Of a stretch of DNA of 64,000 nucleotides, positions 52,302-57,749 are shown in pieces; the first letter of the stretch is position 1, and each line of letters starts with the position of its first letter. Source of the stretch: a bacterium. Lineage in GTDB: Bacteria > Verrucomicrobiota > Kiritimatiellia > CAIKKV01 > CAITUY01. The notes below the pieces were generated by a model. The model did not search any database and had not been told where the DNA came from. It saw only the letters and a list, made by a program, of their open reading frames with translations. Made by a program: the position numbers and the translations under genes. The stretch covers positions 1-64,000 of the forward strand of contig JBAWZF010000008.1 in the NCBI GenBank assembly GCA_037143175.1, written 5' to 3'.

Positions 52302-54779
52302 ATGGCCTTGAAGAAATCTGAACTCTACTCATCCCTCTGGGCCGGGTGTGACGAACTGCGCGGCGGTATGGATGCCAGTCAGTACAAGGACTATGTTCTG
52401 GTGCTGCTTTTCGTTAAATACGTCAGCGATAAGTTTGCCGGTCAGCCTTATGCTCCCATCACGATTCCGCCAGGCGCCAGTTTCACTGACTTGGTCGCAC
52501 TCAAGGGCAAAGCGAGCATCGGCGATGACATCAATAAGAAAATCCTGGGCCCCCTCGCTCAGGCCAACACGCTGTCTGATATGCCGGATTTCAACGATCC
52601 GAACAAACTCGGTAGCGGCAAGGAGATGGTCGAGCGCCTGACCAACCTCATCGCCATTTTCGAAAACCCCGCCCTCGATTTCTCAAAGAACCGCGCTGAT
52701 GGGGATGACCTCCTGGGGGATGCCTATGAATACCTGATGCGGCATTTCGCCACGGAAAGCGGCAAGAGCAAAGGCCAGTTCTATACCCCCGCCGAGGTCA
52801 GCCGCGTCATCGCCCAGATCCTCGGGATCCACCATGCAGACACCCGGAACGAAACCACCGTCTATGATCCGACCTGCGGCTCCGGCTCCCTTCTCTTGAA
52901 GGTCGGGGATGAGGCGCGGCACGGCAAGGACGTGCACGTCTCCCTGTTCGGACAGGAAAAGGATTCCTCCACTGCCGGTCTCGCCCACATGAATATGATC
53001 CTGCATAATTATGGCACGGCCGAGATCAAGCAGGGCAACACGCTTGCCAGTCCCCTTTTTATCGAAGGCGACGCGCTGAAGACCTTCGATTACGTCGTCG
53101 CCAATCCGCCCTTCAGCGATAAACGCTGGAGCACCGGCCTCACTCCCGACGTCGATCCCTTCCGTCGTTTCGCCGGCTATGGCGTTCCGCCTGCCAAGCA
53201 GGGCGACTACGCCTACCTCCTGCATATCCTCCGCTCACTCAAGAGCACAGGCAAGGGCGCCTGCATCCTCCCGCACGGTGTTCTCTTCCGTGGCAACGCC
53301 GAGGGCGTCATCCGCCGCAATCTGATCCAGCGTGGCGTGATCAAGGGAATTATCGGCCTGCCCGCCAACCTTTTCTACGGCACCGGCATCCCCGCCTGCA
53401 TCATCATGCTGGACAAGGAGCACGCCCAGGCCCGCAAGGGCATTTTCATGATTGATGCCTCCAAGGGGTTCCGGAAGGACGGCAACAAAAACCGCCTCCG
53501 TGAACAGGACATCCACCGTATTGTGGACACCTTCACCCGTCAGGTCGAAATCCCCGGCTACGCCCGCCTGATCCCCGTGTCCGAGATCAGCGCCGCGAAA
53601 AATGACTACAATCTCAACCTGCCCCGCTACATCGACAGTACTGAGGCCGAGGACCTTCAGGACATCACCGCCCATTTGCGCGGCGGTATCCCGGATCGCG
53701 ACCTTGATGCGCTGGCCCGCTACTGGACCGTGCTCCCCAATGTCCGGGCGACCCTTTTCAAACCCGTGCGAAAAGGCTATTCCCGACTCTCGACTCTCGA
53801 CTCTCAACCCGCAACTGGTTCATCTCTGAAAGCGGCGATCCTTGGCCATGAGGAATTCACCGCCTTTAACGCCTCCGCAACCAAACTTTTTACGAAATGG
53901 AAGAACGCCAATACCCCGCACCTTAAGGGCTTCACCCAGAACGGCCATCCCAAGGTCCTCATCGAAACCATTTCTGAGAACCTGCTCACTACCTTTGAAA
54001 AGGCGCCACTTCTGGACCCCTATGACATTTACCAGCACCTCATGGACTACTGGGCTGAGACGATGCAGGACGATAGTTACATCATCGCCGACGAGGGCTG
54101 GCTCAAGGGTGCCCAGCCCCGGCTCGTGATTGAGGACAAGGCCAAGAAGACCAAGGCCAAGCCTGATTTCGTGGTCGGCAAAAAGAAATACCAGACCGAA
54201 CTGATCCCGCCCGCCCTGGTCATCGCCCGCTACTACGCCAAGGAGCAGGCCGCCATTGAGACGTTGGAAGCGCAGATCGCCGCCATTCAGCAGCAGATTG
54301 AGGAAATGGCCGAGGAACACGGTGGGGAAGAGGGGCTGCTGGTCGAAGCCTTTACCGAAAAAGGCACACTCACCGCCAAGAGCGTGAAAGACCGGCTCAA
54401 GCAGTTGGCAGTTGACAGTGGGCAGTGGACAGTGGAGGAAGAAGACGCATTGACCGGGTGGTTGAAGTTGGCGCAGCAGGAAGCGGACACCGGTGCGGAA
54501 CTCAAGACCGTGCAGGACGCGCTCATGGCCAAGGTCGCGGCCAAATACGGTCAACTCACCGAGACCGAGATCAAGACCCTTGTGGTGGACGACAAATGGC
54601 TGGCCACCCTGGCCGCCGCCGTGCAGGGCGAGTTGGACCGTGTCTCCCAGACCCTGACCGGCCGCATTCGCGAACTCGCTGAACGCTACGCATCCCCCCT
54701 GCCACAGATTACTGAGGAAGTGGCTGAACTGGAAGCCAAGGTGGCCAGGCATCTGGAGAGAATGGGTTTCAAGTCATGA
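52302..54779 (+). CDS. hsdM: Type I restriction-modification methyltransferase subunit
   Basis: An 825-residue N6-adenine methyltransferase. The N-terminal helical HsdM_N domain reads SSLWAGCDELRGGMDASQYKDY. The SAM-binding motif is PTCGSGSLLLKV near 190 and the catalytic NPPF is at 268-271. The C-terminal third is long and helical (about 600-825) and probably contacts HsdS. Two inserts are encoded by tandem heptamers: SRLSTLDSQ near 495 and LAVDSGQWTVEEE near 701-713. The stop codon is part of a 16-bp sequence repeated 639 bp downstream. Confidence 0.94.
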   Translation: MALKKSELYSSLWAGCDELRGGMDASQYKDYVLVLLFVKYVSDKFAGQPYAPITIPPGASFTDLVALKGKASIGDDINKKILGPLAQANTLSDMPDFNDPNKLGSGKEMVERLTNLIAIFENPALDFSKNRADGDDLLGDAYEYLMRHFATESGKSKGQFYTPAEVSRVIAQILGIHHADTRNETTVYDPTCGSGSLLLKVGDEARHGKDVHVSLFGQEKDSSTAGLAHMNMILHNYGTAEIKQGNTLASPLFIEGDALKTFDYVVANPPFSDKRWSTGLTPDVDPFRRFAGYGVPPAKQGDYAYLLHILRSLKSTGKGACILPHGVLFRGNAEGVIRRNLIQRGVIKGIIGLPANLFYGTGIPACIIMLDKEHAQARKGIFMIDASKGFRKDGNKNRLREQDIHRIVDTFTRQVEIPGYARLIPVSEISAAKNDYNLNLPRYIDSTEAEDLQDITAHLRGGIPDRDLDALARYWTVLPNVRATLFKPVRKGYSRLSTLDSQPATGSSLKAAILGHEEFTAFNASATKLFTKWKNANTPHLKGFTQNGHPKVLIETISENLLTTFEKAPLLDPYDIYQHLMDYWAETMQDDSYIIADEGWLKGAQPRLVIEDKAKKTKAKPDFVVGKKKYQTELIPPALVIARYYAKEQAAIETLEAQIAAIQQQIEEMAEEHGGEEGLLVEAFTEKGTLTAKSVKDRLKQLAVDSGQWTVEEEDALTGWLKLAQQEADTGAELKTVQDALMAKVAAKYGQLTETEIKTLVVDDKWLATLAAAVQGELDRVSQTLTGRIRELAERYASPLPQITEEVAELEAKVARHLERMGFKS
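53784..53804. repeat. Three tandem CGACTCT heptamers in hsdM
   Basis: Three perfect copies of CGACTCT sit in frame between the methyltransferase core and the C-terminal region of hsdM. Three heptamers make 21 bp, so the frame is kept. Confidence 0.85.
54402..54436. repeat. Five tandem CAGTKGR heptamers in hsdM
   Basis: Units CAGTTGG, CAGTTGA, CAGTGGG, CAGTGGA and CAGTGGA follow each other without gaps. The same heptamer family occurs on the other strand at the start of hsdS (56327-56361). Confidence 0.9.
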
Positions 54780-54813: not shown

Positions 54814-54896
54814 GCATCGTAATCGTAATCTTAATCCTAATCGTAATCTCTTGCCCCAAAGAGGATTATGATTAAGATTACGATTAAGATTATGAA
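54814..54896. repeat. Imperfect palindrome of ATTAAG/ATTACG repeats, left of four-helix-bundle gene
   Basis: The left arm (54814-54850) is made of TAATCGTAATCTTAATC-type units and the right arm (54861-54896) of GATTAAGATTACGATTAAG-type units. The arms are inverted around a 10-nt loop and form a long imperfect hairpin. Confidence 0.75.
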
Positions 54897-54944
54897 TCAG
54901 AAAAGACCCTTAAGTAAGCGCCATTCCCCTCTAAAGTGCTAATC

Positions 54945-55331
54945 ATGAACACAAGTTTTGATCACGAGAAATTGAATGTATACAAAGAGGCGATTAAGTT
55001 TGTCGTTTGGGCGGATGAACTTCTGGAAACGCTCCCCAAAAATCTGGCTGTGCACGGTCAACTGGACAGAGCAGCGACATCCATTCCGCTAAACATTGCT
55101 GAGGGAAATGGGAAATACACAGCACCTGATCGATGCCGATTCTTCGATATCGCTCGTGGTTCGGCACTGGAATGTGCGGCGTGTCTGGATGTGCTTGTAG
55201 CCAAAAAAAGACTTAAAGAGGCCGACGAGGGGAAAGAGATTCTGGTTCGAATCGTCTCCATGCTGGTAGGATTAATCAGAAGCACATCGTCTGATCGTGT
55301 TCATGAAGATAGTTGCTCTTACGTAACGTAA
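54945..55331 (+). CDS. Four-helix-bundle protein (S23/Avd-like)
   Basis: A 128-residue, all-helical protein of the family first noted as the product of intervening sequences in 23S rRNA genes. The family signature is clear: KLNVYKEAIKFVVWADELLETLP and QLDRAATSIPLNIAEGNGKY, ending in helices around ARGSALECAACLDVL. Relatives form pentameric bundles that can bind nucleic acid, but no activity is established for most. It sits alone within a 639-bp segment inserted exactly at the hsdM/downstream-gene junction and is flanked by ATTAAG-type repeats. I chose the ATG at 54945 (MNTSFDHEK); a GTG nine bases upstream is possible. Confidence 0.9.
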   Translation: MNTSFDHEKLNVYKEAIKFVVWADELLETLPKNLAVHGQLDRAATSIPLNIAEGNGKYTAPDRCRFFDIARGSALECAACLDVLVAKKRLKEADEGKEILVRIVSMLVGLIRSTSSDRVHEDSCSYVT

Positions 55332-55345
55332 AACGGGAAACCAGT

Positions 55346-55386
55346 GGATTAAGATTAAGATTAAAATTAGGATTAGGATAAAGATA
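55346..55386. repeat. ATTAAG/ATTAGG tandem repeats right of four-helix-bundle gene
   Basis: GATTAAGATTAAGATTAAAATTAGGATTAGGATAAAG lies just after the four-helix-bundle gene, inverted relative to the first tract on its left side. The outer sequences (GGGGATAATATCG on the left; CTTTATCC...GGGGGTTATC on the complement of the right) are loosely similar. Confidence 0.7.
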
Positions 55387-55411
55387 ACCCCCTGCAGAAG
55401 TGACTGTGCCC

Positions 55412-55427
55412 GTCATGAGCGAGAACA
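55412..55427. repeat. Right copy of 16-bp direct repeat at cassette edge
   Basis: Identical to 54773-54788. It contains the ATG used by the downstream small gene, so after insertion both hsdM's stop and this gene's start were kept. Confidence 0.9.
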
Positions 55428-56020
55428 AGAAAATCCATAGTATCTTTAGCAGCGGTGAATTGCTGGAAGATCCTGTTATCCGGAAATTCCGGAATACTGC
55501 CACAAAGATTGAAGAAAAAGCAGCGTGTCGGAATTTCCGACATACTGCCGATTACGGAAAACGAATTCTTGCGACAGTGTCGCAAGAATTGACGGCTGAG
55601 TACGGCAGGGAGGCCAATTGCTCGGAGCTCACCCATACGGATCGCTTTGCCAATGTGTCGACGCCGTCGACACAATTAAACGGACGACACGGGTTCGACA
55701 GGCTCACCGCAGGCGGAGGTCGTCCCTCAGTACCGCATTTACTGGTGAACCCAAAATGTGCGAAGGATTCGCACATTTTGAGTTGGTCCCATTACGTCGA
55801 GTTTCTTGGCATCTGGGAAACCGTTTTTCAATCACAAGTTTATTATGGCGAATTCGCCATAATTAAAAGCCAGGCAGTTCAATGTGATCAGAACATTCTG
55901 AACTGCAAGGCCTTAGAGATTCGGCAGACAGTGTCTGCCGAATTGGCCCTCAAAGGCGAATTTGAAGCGACAATTGCAGCGGAAGGAAGAGCCATGAAGA
56001 AGATGGAGTTCAAGATATGA
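55415..56020 (+). CDS. Palindrome-rich small gene with DUF1016 (YhcG)-like and RhuM-like segments
   Basis: A 201-residue reading frame (MSENKKIHSIFSS...). Segments resemble conserved pieces of two families common beside restriction-modification genes. FSSGELLEDPVIRKFRNTA and CRNFRHTA resemble the RhuM family. YGKRILATVSQELTAEYGR and ILSWSHYVEFLGIWE resemble the N-terminal DUF1016 domain of YhcG-like proteins. The frame contains seven of ten near-perfect palindromes and a REP-like insert, yet stays open and overlaps the next gene by ATGA. It is either a mosaic remnant or a living gene that tolerates in-frame palindromic insertions. Family matches are from memory of motifs and need a search. 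Confidence 0.55.
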   Translation: MSENKKIHSIFSSGELLEDPVIRKFRNTATKIEEKAACRNFRHTADYGKRILATVSQELTAEYGREANCSELTHTDRFANVSTPSTQLNGRHGFDRLTAGGGRPSVPHLLVNPKCAKDSHILSWSHYVEFLGIWETVFQSQVYYGEFAIIKSQAVQCDQNILNCKALEIRQTVSAELALKGEFEATIAAEGRAMKKMEFKI

Positions 56021-56265
56021 ATATTGAAAATGATGGATCTCCCCTCATGAGCAATATGTGCAACTCGTTGGACAAAAATGGGATAAGAGGTGTATCGCCC
56101 CCCAATCTCCGCAAATTCAGGGAATTTTATCTGGCTTACCGGGAGATTCAACAGACGCTGTCTGTTGAATCTGATGCAACGTTCGCCATGAAACCCGGCC
56201 CAATTCTCGTGACAGTGTCACGAAGATTAAACAGAGGGACAACTATCCGGAATTTCCGGATAGTT
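55479..56265. repeat. Array of ten near-perfect palindromes with covarying arms
   Basis: Perfect-arm palindromes lie at 55479-55493, 55526-55542, 55564-55590, 55654-55674, 55752-55780, 55842-55863, 55919-55943, 56144-56172, 56207-56223 and 56241-56265. Arms are 7-13 bp with 0-3 nt centres. An imperfect one lies at 55874-55906. One set shares the core GACA-G-TGTC or a close variant, with different but still complementary outer arms. A second set shares GGAA-N-TTCC. Confidence 0.92.
55682..55725. repeat. REP-like inverted repeat inside the palindrome-rich gene
   Basis: GGACGAC (55682-55688) and GTCGTCC (55719-55725) enclose GGTTCGACAGGCTCACCGC and an inner CCGCAGGCGG palindrome. The TTCGACAGGCTCA core resembles dispersed repeats seen in many bacterial genomes. 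Confidence 0.6.
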
Positions 56266-56310
56266 CAATTCGCGCCCTTTCTCCGTCAACTCCCCAAAAG
56301 CCGCCCATGA
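56017..56310 (+). CDS. Small coupled gene with DUF1016-like fragment and palindromes
   Basis: A 97-residue frame that overlaps both its neighbours by ATGA, so the ribosome could pass from the preceding gene through this one into hsdS. The middle part (GVSPPNLRKFREFYLAYREI) resembles the DUF1016 segment that follows GFS in YhcG-like proteins. It then runs through three palindromes that encode QTLSVES, VTVSRRL and IRNFRIVQ. The end (FAPFLRQLPKSRP) shows no family. It may be a truncated relative of the preceding gene. Expression is supported only by the overlaps. Confidence 0.5.
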   Translation: MNIENDGSPLMSNMCNSLDKNGIRGVSPPNLRKFREFYLAYREIQQTLSVESDATFAMKPGPILVTVSRRLNRGTTIRNFRIVQFAPFLRQLPKSRP

Positions 56311-57749
56311 ACTCACCACTCGCCGCTCCACTGTCCACTGCCCACTGCCCACTGTCCACTCTTGGCTCCCCCCCCATCCCCCCCGGCTACAAACAGACCG
56401 ACGTGGGCGTGATCCCGGAGGAATGGGAGGTTTCCTCCGTGGGTCGTGAGTTTGAAATCAAACTCGGTAAGATGCTCGACTCCGAAAAGAATTTTGGCGT
56501 GTCGAAGCCATATCTTGGTAACAGGGCAGTTCAGTGGGATCGAATCGATATTAGCGACCTGCCGAACGTCCCGATGACACGCGCCGATATTGAAAGATTT
56601 CGCTTGAGAAAAGGTGACCTTCTTGTGTGCGAAGGCGGTGAAGTTGGCCGCGCTGCAATATGGGATGCTCCGATTGACGAATGCTACTACCAAAAAGCGA
56701 TCCACCGATTGCGTGCTTTACGTGGCTTCGACTCGAGGCTCATGGCGGCGCTATTGCGTCTATGGTCTGAGCGTGGGCTCCTTGCAAACTACGTAACCCA
56801 GACAAGCATCGCGCACCTGCCCCGTGAGAAGTTCATGGAAATTCCGATACCCGTGCCTCCCCTCCCCGAACAACGCGCCATCGCCGAGGCATTAAGCGAT
56901 GTGGATGCGCTACTGTGCGGACTGGACCGGCTCATTGCCAAGAAACGCGACCTCAAACAGGCCACCATGCAGCAACTCCTTACCCCGCCACGGGCGGGGC
57001 AAGCCGGCCAAACCCGCCTCCCTGGGTTCAAAGGGGAGTGGGAGGTGAAGAGGCTGGGGGAGGTTGGCAAGTGCCTTCGCGGTGTTAGTTACCAAGGAGA
57101 CAGTGATCTGTCTAATCGCGATACGACTCGTACGAAGCGACTGCTTCGGTCGAACAACGTTCAGGATGCTGTCGTCGTCACTGAAGATGTTCAATTCGTT
57201 AATGCTGCACGAGTGACATTGCTCCAAGTGCTCAAAAAAGATGACATTCTTATTTGTATGGCAAACGGCAGCAAGGCCCTTGTTGGTAAGTCTGGTTTGT
57301 TCAGGGTGATCGATGGATACGAATACACATTCGGCGCTTTCATGGGTTGCTTTCGCACGAACCCCAATGAAACGAATCCCTCTTTTGTTTTCTATCTTTT
57401 CCAGACTGGACGATACCGCGACTACATCAATAACTTGCTCGCAGGTTCGAGCATCAACAATTTGAGGCCGAGCAGTATTGAGTCTCTTGAGTTTCCCATT
57501 CCCCCCCTCCCCGAACAAACCGCCATCGCCGGTGTGCTCTCCGACATGGATACGGAACTGGCGGCGTTGGAGCAGAGGCGGGAGAAGACCCGCGCCCTCA
57601 AGCAGGGGATGATGCAGGAGCTGCTGACGGGGAGGATCAGGCTGGGTGCGGGAGGGGAACAAAAGGGAAAAATGAGACATATTGAAGAAATGGGACGTAT
57701 AAAACATGGGGCACCTGTGTCCCATAAAGCACGGGGAGGTGCCGCGTGA
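56307..57749 (+). CDS. hsdS: Type I restriction-modification specificity subunit
   Basis: A 480-residue HsdS with two target-recognition domains, each followed by a conserved helical spacer: PPLPEQRAIAEALSDVDALL (about 188-207) and PPLPEQTAIAGVLSDMDTEL (about 400). The two halves read the two parts of a bipartite DNA site. The first 20 residues, before GYKQTDVGVIPEEWEV, are encoded by five inverted CAGTGGA-type heptamers and are probably an added leader. The tail after TGRIRL, about 30 residues, is encoded by another degenerate repeat. Four-bp overlaps link it to the genes on both sides. Confidence 0.93.
   Translation: MNSPLAAPLSTAHCPLSTLGSPPIPPGYKQTDVGVIPEEWEVSSVGREFEIKLGKMLDSEKNFGVSKPYLGNRAVQWDRIDISDLPNVPMTRADIERFRLRKGDLLVCEGGEVGRAAIWDAPIDECYYQKAIHRLRALRGFDSRLMAALLRLWSERGLLANYVTQTSIAHLPREKFMEIPIPVPPLPEQRAIAEALSDVDALLCGLDRLIAKKRDLKQATMQQLLTPPRAGQAGQTRLPGFKGEWEVKRLGEVGKCLRGVSYQGDSDLSNRDTTRTKRLLRSNNVQDAVVVTEDVQFVNAARVTLLQVLKKDDILICMANGSKALVGKSGLFRVIDGYEYTFGAFMGCFRTNPNETNPSFVFYLFQTGRYRDYINNLLAGSSINNLRPSSIESLEFPIPPLPEQTAIAGVLSDMDTELAALEQRREKTRALKQGMMQELLTGRIRLGAGGEQKGKMRHIEEMGRIKHGAPVSHKARGGAA
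56327..56361. repeat. Five tandem YCCACTG heptamers at the start of hsdS
   Basis: TCCACTG, TCCACTG, CCCACTG, CCCACTG and TCCACTC run without gaps. They are the reverse complement of the CAGTGGR units in hsdM (54402-54436) and encode residues just after the hsdS start. Confidence 0.9.
57671..57725. repeat. Degenerate GGGACRTAT-type repeat at the 3' end of hsdS
   Basis: ATGAGACATATTGA, ATGGGACGTAT and the complement of GTGTCCCAT occur close together and encode the non-conserved hsdS tail. A related inverted piece (GTCCCATATGTCCCCTATG) lies at 58472-58490. Confidence 0.45.

What the first reader, a model, noticed from the sequence alone, without database searches (positions are those of the whole stretch)
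55479..56265. Ten near-perfect palindromes with covarying arms, read in fixed frames, inside two small genes between hsdM and hsdS
In under 800 bp there are ten palindromes with perfect arms of 7-13 bp and 0-3 nt centres. They are not copies of one sequence. Five have the core GACA-G-TGTC or a close variant, with outer arms that differ but stay complementary (CTTGC/GCAAG, CGGCA/TGCCG, TCGT/ACGA). Three have GGAA-N-TTCC with different flanks. Every member of the first set is read as xTxSxx followed by L or S (ATVSQEL, STPSTQL, QTVSAEL, QTLSVES, VTVSRRL). Every member of the second is read as R-K/N-F-R (IRKFRNTA, CRNFRHTA, IRNFRIVQ). Both the pairing and the frame are therefore preserved across two genes. 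This could be a family of in-frame palindromic insertion elements, comparable in idea to Rickettsia palindromic elements but with variable arms, or structured sites that direct recombination or diversification of these genes.
Basis: partly seen in the sequence, partly recalled or inferred. Interest (0 to 1): 0.88.

Follow-up and report, generated by a model that had tools for sequence, protein, structure and literature searches.

The report
Defence genes with built-in DNA palindromes
Four unrelated families of bacterial genes that ride along with anti-virus systems each carry, at one fixed point inside the protein-coding sequence, a short DNA palindrome whose two halves change together, and phages carry the same palindromes without the genes, which suggests a hidden DNA 'password' that could be tested directly in ordinary E. 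coli (gene yhcG).

Summary
In detail: 10 palindromes (arms of 7 or more) lie in the 979-bp hsdM-hsdS gap and fill 23% of it, against 0.5% in a 400-kb genome sample. The two 'genes' are relic ORFs that mix pieces of YhcG/DUF1016, RhuM and KilA-N genes. Intact homologues do not lack the palindromes; they carry them at one fixed codon position. I found this in YhcG (69 of 80 loci across phyla, E. coli yhcG among them), RhuM (all 23), KilA-N (47 of 49 viral loci) and ORF6N (about 16 of 18). Arms vary but stay complementary. Synonymous-codon shuffles give arms of 10 or more in 0.13% of cases, against 71% observed. Mismatches show no G:U excess, so the constraint looks DNA-level. Orphan copies exist: 38 of 44 viral matches to one 25-bp RhuM palindrome have no rhuM gene; 31 of those are intergenic. 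In 947 E. coli genomes the gltD-nanQ site without yhcG holds one palindrome; in the strain read it is 27/27 identical to yhcG's own. Best reading: cognate DNA recognition sites, perhaps self-immunity elements like BstA's aba, copied by phages; the window is a relic collection. Function is inferred, not shown. A recombination-site role is the main rival.

The parts
52302..54779 (+). hsdM, type I restriction-modification methyltransferase (left border of the locus)
   Evidence: Pfam N6_Mtase 2e-101, HsdM_N; PADLOC MTase_I
54936..55331 (+). 23S_rRNA_IVP family gene inserted between hsdM and the palindrome stretch
   Evidence: PF05635 E=4.5e-21
55400..56020 (+). relic ORF 1 (206 aa): mosaic of RhuM, YhcG and KilA-N pieces, not an intact gene
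   Evidence: DUF1016_N below cut-off; tblastn pieces; KilA-N match YGEFAIIKSQA
55479..55493 (+). palindrome 1, arm 7, RhuM type (PVIRKFRNTA)
55526..55542 (+). palindrome 2, arm 8, TGTCGGAATTTCCGACA, RhuM type (CRNFRHTA)
55564..55590 (+). palindrome 3, arm 13, AATTCTTGCGACAGTGTCGCAAGAATT, YhcG type (ILATVSQEL; intact counterpart ILVTVSREL in L024)
55654..55674 (+). palindrome 4, arm 10, TGTGTCGACGCCGTCGACACA, YhcG type (NVSTPSTQL)
55752..55780 (+). palindrome 5, arm 13, CAAAATGTGCGAAGGATTCGCACATTTTG, YhcG subtype (PKCAKDSHILSWSHYVEFL; counterpart PKGAELPHLLSWTHFVELL in L015)
55842..55863 (+). palindrome 6, even-centred arm 11, ATTATGGCGAATTCGCCATAAT, KilA-N type; core identical to KilA-N genes L274, L275, L282
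55866..55914 (+). imperfect gapped inverted repeat (AGTTCA...TGAACT), family not assigned
55919..55943 (+). palindrome 7, arm 12, ATTCGGCAGACAGTGTCTGCCGAAT, YhcG IxQTxS type
56017..56310 (+). relic ORF 2 (97 aa): YhcG piece (GVSPPNLRKFREFYLAYREIQQTLSVES), second YhcG piece, RhuM piece
56144..56172 (+). palindrome 8, arm 13, AGATTCAACAGACGCTGTCTGTTGAATCT, YhcG IxQTxS type
56202..56228 (+). palindrome 9, inner arm 8 perfect (TCGTGACAGTGTCACGA), YhcG type (ILVTVSRRL)
56241..56265 (+). palindrome 10, arm 12, AACTATCCGGAATTTCCGGATAGTT, RhuM type (TIRNFRIVQ); exact 25-mer in 44 viral stretches
56307..57749 (+). hsdS, type I specificity subunit (right border of the locus)
   Evidence: PF01420 E=2.1e-29

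Best explanation
The palindromes are cis-acting DNA sites belonging to four families of accessory genes that sit in restriction-modification and prophage loci (YhcG/DUF1016, RhuM, KilA-N, ORF6N). SHOWN: each family carries, at one fixed codon position, a 22-33 bp palindrome with family-specific core and ends and variable but complementary arms; it is kept at DNA level; it is multiplied in some yhcG genes; it also occurs without the gene, in phages and in hsdM-hsdS gaps. INFERRED: the encoded protein recognises its own family's palindrome as a symmetric double-stranded or cruciform site and treats DNA carrying it as self, as BstA does with its intragenic aba DNA element; phages and hosts that keep or capture a palindrome gain immunity or a decoy. 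The window is a relic collection: at least ten former or captured sites from three families between hsdM and hsdS.
For: Fixed position across phyla: YhcG 69/80 loci, 5.2 palindromes per kb in the zone against 0.12 elsewhere in the same loci; RhuM 23/23 with 3 or fewer mismatches of 11, 17 of 23 with 1 or fewer (shuffles 1.8%), and viral RhuM 17/17 with 2 or fewer mismatches; KilA-N 47/49 viral loci, in codon register; ORF6N about 16/18. DNA-level constraint: synonymous shuffles give arm 10 or more in 0.13% against 53/75; GC-rich yhcG genes use ATT for the motif Ile 57/60 (elsewhere 93/533) and TCT for the motif Ser 59/60 (95/947). Covariation: variable triplet complementary in 55/66 genes, 6.1 when shuffled; three or four pair types at d=7-9. 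Not an mRNA hairpin: G:T 32, A:C 47 mismatches in YhcG. In ten genomes the YhcG consensus occurs only in yhcG-type genes or just beside one. Orphans: 38 of 44 exact RhuM 25-mers in viral contigs have no rhuM hit, 31/38 outside ORFs (random 21%), 38 distinct flanks; 33 perfect against 48 imperfect KilA-type matches, 23 perfect ones outside the gene. One orphan lies beside a phage DNA methylase gene. YhcG, RhuM and KilA-N are PADLOC candidate defence families PDC-S02, S05, S22. Precedent: BstA-aba, DNA-based, cognate, transferable (PMC8585504).
Against: No functional data. BstA's aba is 63 bp at the gene start with direct repeats, not a palindrome. One yhcG gene can hold several palindromes with different arms, awkward for a single sequence-specific reader. 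RhuM mismatches lean slightly to G:T (10 against 3 A:C). YhcG, RhuM, KilA-N and ORF6N activity against phages is itself only predicted. Orphan 'immunity' sites do not explain why palindromes are the only recognisable part left in hsdM-hsdS gaps, nor the E. coli left junction.
Confidence: 0.42

Rival explanations
1. Recombination or attachment sites: the palindromes are structure-recognised sites (like integron attC hairpins in idea) through which these hitchhiker genes enter, leave or are shuffled; the palindrome left behind is the scar.
For: E. coli ATCC 25922 has gltD and nanQ 67 bp apart with only AATTCGCCAGACAGTGTCTGGCGAATT between, identical 27/27 to yhcG's internal palindrome; K-12-like strains have a palindrome at the left end of the gltF-yhcG insert and another 16 bp after yhcG; 947 genomes carry the empty site. 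Breakpoints at palindrome edges: yhcG truncated right after palindrome 3 (L199), KilA-N truncated two codons after it (L330-L334), lone 27-bp palindrome between yhcG and hsdS (L250). rhuM flanked by palindromes in a phage (L217). YhcG C-domain was related to Holliday-junction-resolvase-type PD-(D/E)XK nucleases (PMC1189080).
Against: The palindrome lies inside the gene, not at a cassette end, in nearly all homologues; the strain with gltD-yhcG-nanQ alone has no left palindrome; no shared recombinase was found; right arms of the E. coli pairs do not match what simple crossing-over would leave; only some loci show it.
Confidence: 0.25
2. Autogenous regulation: each protein binds the palindrome in its own gene as an operator or roadblock that sets its own expression and that of the operon it sits in.
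For: Sites lie in the gene itself (or just beside it) and nowhere else in ten genomes; RhuM has a weak helix-turn-helix match and KilA-N is a DNA-binding domain; dimer binding explains symmetric arms.
Against: Operators 250 bp inside a gene are unusual; does not explain orphans in phages that lack the gene or in the gltD-nanQ gap.
Confidence: 0.15
3. Mutational upkeep: template switching between the arms keeps rewriting one arm from the other, so complementarity is mutational and not selected.
For: Known to homogenise inverted-repeat arms and cause clustered amino-acid changes in yeast genes (PMC8604942); would explain perfect arms with free sequence.
Against: Other palindromes of the genome are few (4 with arm 10 or more in 400 kb); same position kept across phyla in four families; family-specific ends and cores kept in non-coding orphans; K-12 yhcG palindrome 1 carries an uncorrected mismatch.
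Confidence: 0.1
4. mRNA hairpin in the coding sequence (pausing, processing or RNA recognition).
For: Stems of 11-16 bp would fold in RNA; RhuM mismatches are G:T 10, A:C 3.
Against: YhcG mismatches show no G:U excess (G:T 32, A:C 47, other 105); innermost pairs with a 1-nt centre, which RNA cannot use, are often kept; KilA-N palindromes have no loop at all; orphans lie in intergenic phage DNA.
Confidence: 0.05

Closest known systems
BstA-aba (prophage phage-defence protein with DNA self-immunity element; PMC8585504)
   Same: A DNA-based element inside the locus of a KilA-N-like defence gene, cognate to its own protein, active when moved to another phage.
   Different: aba is 63 bp at the gene start with CCCGCC direct repeats; ours are palindromes at internal codons, in four families, across phyla, with orphan copies; immunity is not shown.
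Rickettsia palindromic elements (RPE)
   Same: Palindromic DNA read in frame inside genes.
   Different: RPEs are about 100-150 nt selfish inserts scattered in many unrelated genes (PMC4316617); ours are 22-33 bp, at one fixed position of particular families, with covarying arms.
PARCEL (palindromic amphipathic repeat coding elements; PMC2996958)
   Same: Intragenic repeats whose coding DNA shows dyad symmetry, spread by horizontal transfer.
   Different: PARCEL is one 25-residue DUF285 repeat; ours share no protein motif and show independent palindrome classes.
Coding palindromes in Nematomorpha mitochondria (PMC6649704)
   Same: Protein function and perfect inverted repeats kept together in coding DNA.
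   Different: Those are long (to 284 bp), in housekeeping genes, and not shared with orphans.
Integron attC sites (own knowledge)
   Same: Palindromic, conserved structure with variable stem sequence.
   Different: No integrase found as regular neighbour; no R'/R'' core sites; location inside genes rather than after them.

Membership tests
BstA-aba self-immunity element | DNA element overlapping the coding sequence of the defence gene | tested here: met
   Palindromes at fixed codons in four families; codon null
BstA-aba self-immunity element | 63-bp element at the gene start with terminal CCCGCC direct repeats | tested here: not met
   Palindromes are internal, 22-33 bp, without direct repeats (aba sequence)
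BstA-aba self-immunity element | Confers immunity to the cognate protein, in DNA form | not testable with these tools
   Indirect only: orphan copies in phages
Rickettsia palindromic element | about 100-150 nt insert absent from orthologues | tested here: not met
   22-33 bp; homologues across phyla have the site at the same codon
PARCEL | 25-residue amphipathic DUF285-type repeat | tested here: not met
   Encoded peptides differ between families and subtypes
REP/RAYT palindromes | GTAG or CGTC tag at one end of the palindrome | tested here: not met
   Ends are ATT/AAT, AAC/GTT or AGT/ACT
Integron attC | RYYYAAC / GTTRRRY core sites and an integrase that uses them | tested here: not met
   YhcG ends ATT/AAT; no integrase is the regular neighbour
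DUF1016_N (YhcG) gene, for the two window ORFs | Score over the Pfam cut-off of 32.8 bits | tested here: not met
   27.2 and 20.8 bits: relics, not members

The most novel reading that the evidence does not exclude
A general 'password' layer of bacterial defence: several unrelated restriction- and prophage-linked defence proteins test DNA for a palindrome that is written inside their own coding sequence, so protein specificity and password travel and change together; phages steal passwords, and loci such as this window collect them. Amino-acid covariation in four protein families would then be dictated by DNA symmetry.
Probability: 0.35. Interest if true: 0.97.

Novelty: new variant of a known kind. 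Interest (0 to 1): 0.9.

Why it matters
Four widespread families of poorly understood genes found in restriction and prophage loci turn out to obey a second, DNA-level code inside their coding sequences. The same sites sit without the genes in many phages. That gives a direct, cheap handle on what YhcG, RhuM, KilA-N and ORF6N proteins recognise, in E. coli K-12 itself, and may add a class of phage counter-defence that no protein search would find. It also warns that amino-acid covariation in such families is partly nucleotide-driven.

Tried and rejected
Chance: rejected. Protein motif simply encoded that way: rejected by codon shuffles and codon bias. mRNA hairpin: no G:U excess in YhcG. General terminator or regulator site: the YhcG consensus occurs in ten genomes only at yhcG-type genes. 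Plain mobile insert: position fixed in homologues. The YhcG model (mean pLDDT 69, pTM 0.35) shows only that the palindrome-coded residues 100-135 are a disordered linker and that the C-domain is PD-(D/E)XK-like; it does not say what is bound. Solved structures: no relative of YhcG or RhuM by sequence. First attempts with a 13-row alignment and a wrong tree filter failed and were redone. I first saw neighbouring palindrome arrays around phage orphans by eye; with one mismatch or fewer allowed they are not clearly enriched (2 neighbours), so no array claim is made for phages. Literature searches found no report of palindromes in DUF1016, RhuM, KilA-N or ORF6N genes, within an open-access library only. 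Ascertainment caveat: relics are recognised by their palindromes, so non-palindromic relics may be missed; hsdS loci were therefore taken without regard to palindromes.

Full report
1. Observation. The hsdM-hsdS gap of the window holds ten palindromes with perfect arms of 7-13 bp. They fill 227 of 979 bases (23%); in 400 kb sampled from the same genome the fraction is 0.5%, and no 979-bp stretch has more than two palindromes of arm 8 or more against nine here. The rest of the window has none with arm 10 or more.

2. What the two ORFs are. ORF 55400-56020 and ORF 56017-56310 hit DUF1016_N (YhcG) below the Pfam cut-off. Read against relatives they are mosaics: a RhuM piece (SGELLEDPVIRKFRNTA), a second RhuM motif, YhcG pieces of several subtypes (DYGKRILATVSQELTAEYGR; ILSWSHYVEFLGI with PKCAKDSHIL; LRKFREFYLAYREIQQTLSVES; ILVTVSRRL), a KilA-N piece (YGEFAIIKSQA) and a last RhuM motif (TIRNFRIVQ). 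Each piece keeps its palindrome.

3. Intact YhcG genes have the palindrome too. In 24 of 30 DUF1016 loci of relatives a perfect palindrome of arm 8-15 occurs, nearly always about 240-260 nt into the domain, just before the LSWSHY motif, with different sequence each time. In 80 loci from named genomes (Proteobacteria, Planctomycetes, Acidobacteria, Omnitrophota, Patescibacteria, Verrucomicrobia, a cyanobacterium, a Methanoperedens archaeon) 69 have one; density 5.19 per kb in the zone against 0.118 elsewhere in the same loci. Plasmid-borne homologues from other phyla agree. The commonest form is ATT-NNN-CAGAC-RNY-GTCTG-N'N'N'-AAT, read IxQTxSxx; some genes carry two to four units.

4. The constraint is on DNA. 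Shuffling synonymous codons within each gene gives arm 10 or more in 0.13% of trials; 53 of 75 real genes have it. In 48 GC-rich genes the motif Ile is ATT in 57 of 60 (elsewhere 93 of 533) and the motif Ser is TCT in 59 of 60 (elsewhere 95 of 947). The variable triplet is complementary to its partner in 55 of 66 genes against 6.1 expected after shuffling, with about 39 changes on the tree (which unit is orthologous to which is uncertain in multi-unit genes). Pair types at d=7, 8 and 9 run C-G, G-C, T-A, A-T with 4-7 mismatches of 88. Among 188 distinct sites mismatches are G:T 32, A:C 47, other 105, so there is no sign of G:U tolerance; d=12 is paired in 165 of 188 although it was not used for selection.

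5. Three more families. RhuM: all 23 relatives examined have the palindrome at one codon position with 0-3 mismatches of 11; 17 have one or none, which 1.8% of shuffles reach. Two end classes occur, AAC...GTT (AT.....IVQ) and AGT...ACT (SV.....TTA), so residues at both ends covary. Of 17 viral RhuM genes all have two or fewer mismatches, 15 in the same frame. KilA-N: an even-centred palindrome on GAATTC, in codon register, so that codon i is the reverse complement of codon -i (FNYGEFAIIK, FKLVEFDQFR, FNPVEFDGIR, FKPIEFDGFK, FNSLEFEGIR); 10 of 12 relatives have perfect arms of 9 or more, and 47 of 49 viral loci have it at the same phase and nearly the same offset (many of the 49 are near-identical, about 20 distinct sites). 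ORF6N: TTGAGGTCRCAA.TTGYGACCTCAA type in about 16 of 18 loci. YhcG, RhuM and KilA-N are PADLOC candidate defence families PDC-S02, PDC-S05 and PDC-S22. YhcG genes often lie directly behind a type I methyltransferase or an integrase.

6. Orphan palindromes. The exact RhuM 25-mer AACTATCCGGAANTTCCGGATAGTT occurs in 44 viral stretches; with 24 fixed bases chance would give far less than one in any collection of this kind. In 38 there is no rhuM homology nearby, the flanks of the 44 sites fall into 38 distinct types, and 31 of the 38 lie outside ORFs of 100 aa or more against 21% of random positions. For a KilA-type pattern 33 matches are perfect palindromes and 48 are not (chance would be about 1 to 255), and 23 of the perfect ones are not in a recognised KilA-N gene. 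For the YhcG pattern about eleven perfect sites in viral contigs are outside yhcG genes. In one group of phages the orphan site lies 3' of a DNA methylase gene. In hsdS loci taken without regard to palindromes, single palindromes or small groups without a matching intact gene appear in L255, L257 and L250; a relative of the same genus has a cluster of ORF6N-type and YhcG-type sites (L231).

7. E. coli. The E. coli member is yhcG, matched in 4,429 of 5,426 complete genomes. K-12 carries the palindromes (first one with a single mismatch) and another 16 bp after the stop codon. In ATCC 25922 gltD and nanQ are adjacent and the 67 bp between them hold AATTCGCCAGACAGTGTCTGGCGAATT, identical to palindrome 1 inside yhcG; 947 genomes have this empty site. 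K-12-like strains have a palindrome at the left border of the gltF-yhcG stretch as well. Truncations exactly at palindrome edges occur in yhcG (L199) and in phage KilA-N genes (L330-L334).

8. Mechanism. Any explanation must cover DNA-level symmetry at fixed codons in four families, family-specific cores and ends, arms that change but stay paired, and orphans in phages. A cognate recognition site covers these best. A dimer that reads both halves, or an enzyme that reads an extruded cruciform, forces symmetric arms without fixing their sequence; linkage inside the gene keeps site and protein together; a phage that carries the site without the gene gains if the site spares or titrates the protein. 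BstA-aba is an experimental precedent for a DNA-based, cognate, transferable self-immunity element inside a KilA-N-like defence gene, though its element is not a palindrome (PMC8585504). The recombination-site reading has real support from the E. coli empty site and the breakpoints and is the main rival. Steps shown: position, symmetry, DNA-level constraint, orphans, empty site. Steps inferred: binding by the encoded protein, immunity, reason for retention.

9. Limits. Function was not tested. Relics are recognised by their palindromes, so the relic picture is biased. The viral collection may contain host DNA. Mutual exclusion of yhcG and the empty site in E. coli is inferred from totals only. 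The literature search covers open-access papers only.

Noticed in passing
window 54820-54900 and 55345-55385: AT-rich tracts built of GATTAAGATTA/TAATCGTAATCTTAATCC units; many near-copies across the genome.
   Followed up: no
window 55690-55735: GGTTCGACAGGCTCACCGCAGGCGGAGGTCGTCCCTCAGTAC, resembling an interspersed repeat known to me from metagenome genomes, sits between palindromes 4 and 5.
   Followed up: no
L197 1201-1618, L204: yhcG of some E. coli strains (UTAK-12, SCU-104) is frameshifted by a deletion that removes palindrome units; the downstream palindrome is kept.
   Followed up: partly
L217 4547-5838: A phage rhuM gene with one palindrome about 90 bp upstream (YhcG-type core) and another about 110 bp downstream, besides the usual internal one.
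   Followed up: partly
L028 1752-1819: The window's own genome has an intact yhcG on another contig with two tandem copies of one 27-31 bp palindrome (ISPTALAKL).
   Followed up: partly
L203 1480-1540: IS1 inserted inside a yhcG palindrome in E. coli T16R.
   Followed up: no
L218 3423-3449: A perfect YhcG-type palindrome 31 bp behind a small gene next to an ATPase gene that looks like an OLD or PARIS-type defence pair.
   Followed up: no
L210 9937-9985: Two abutting palindromes just upstream of a large serine recombinase gene in a mobile element.
   Followed up: no
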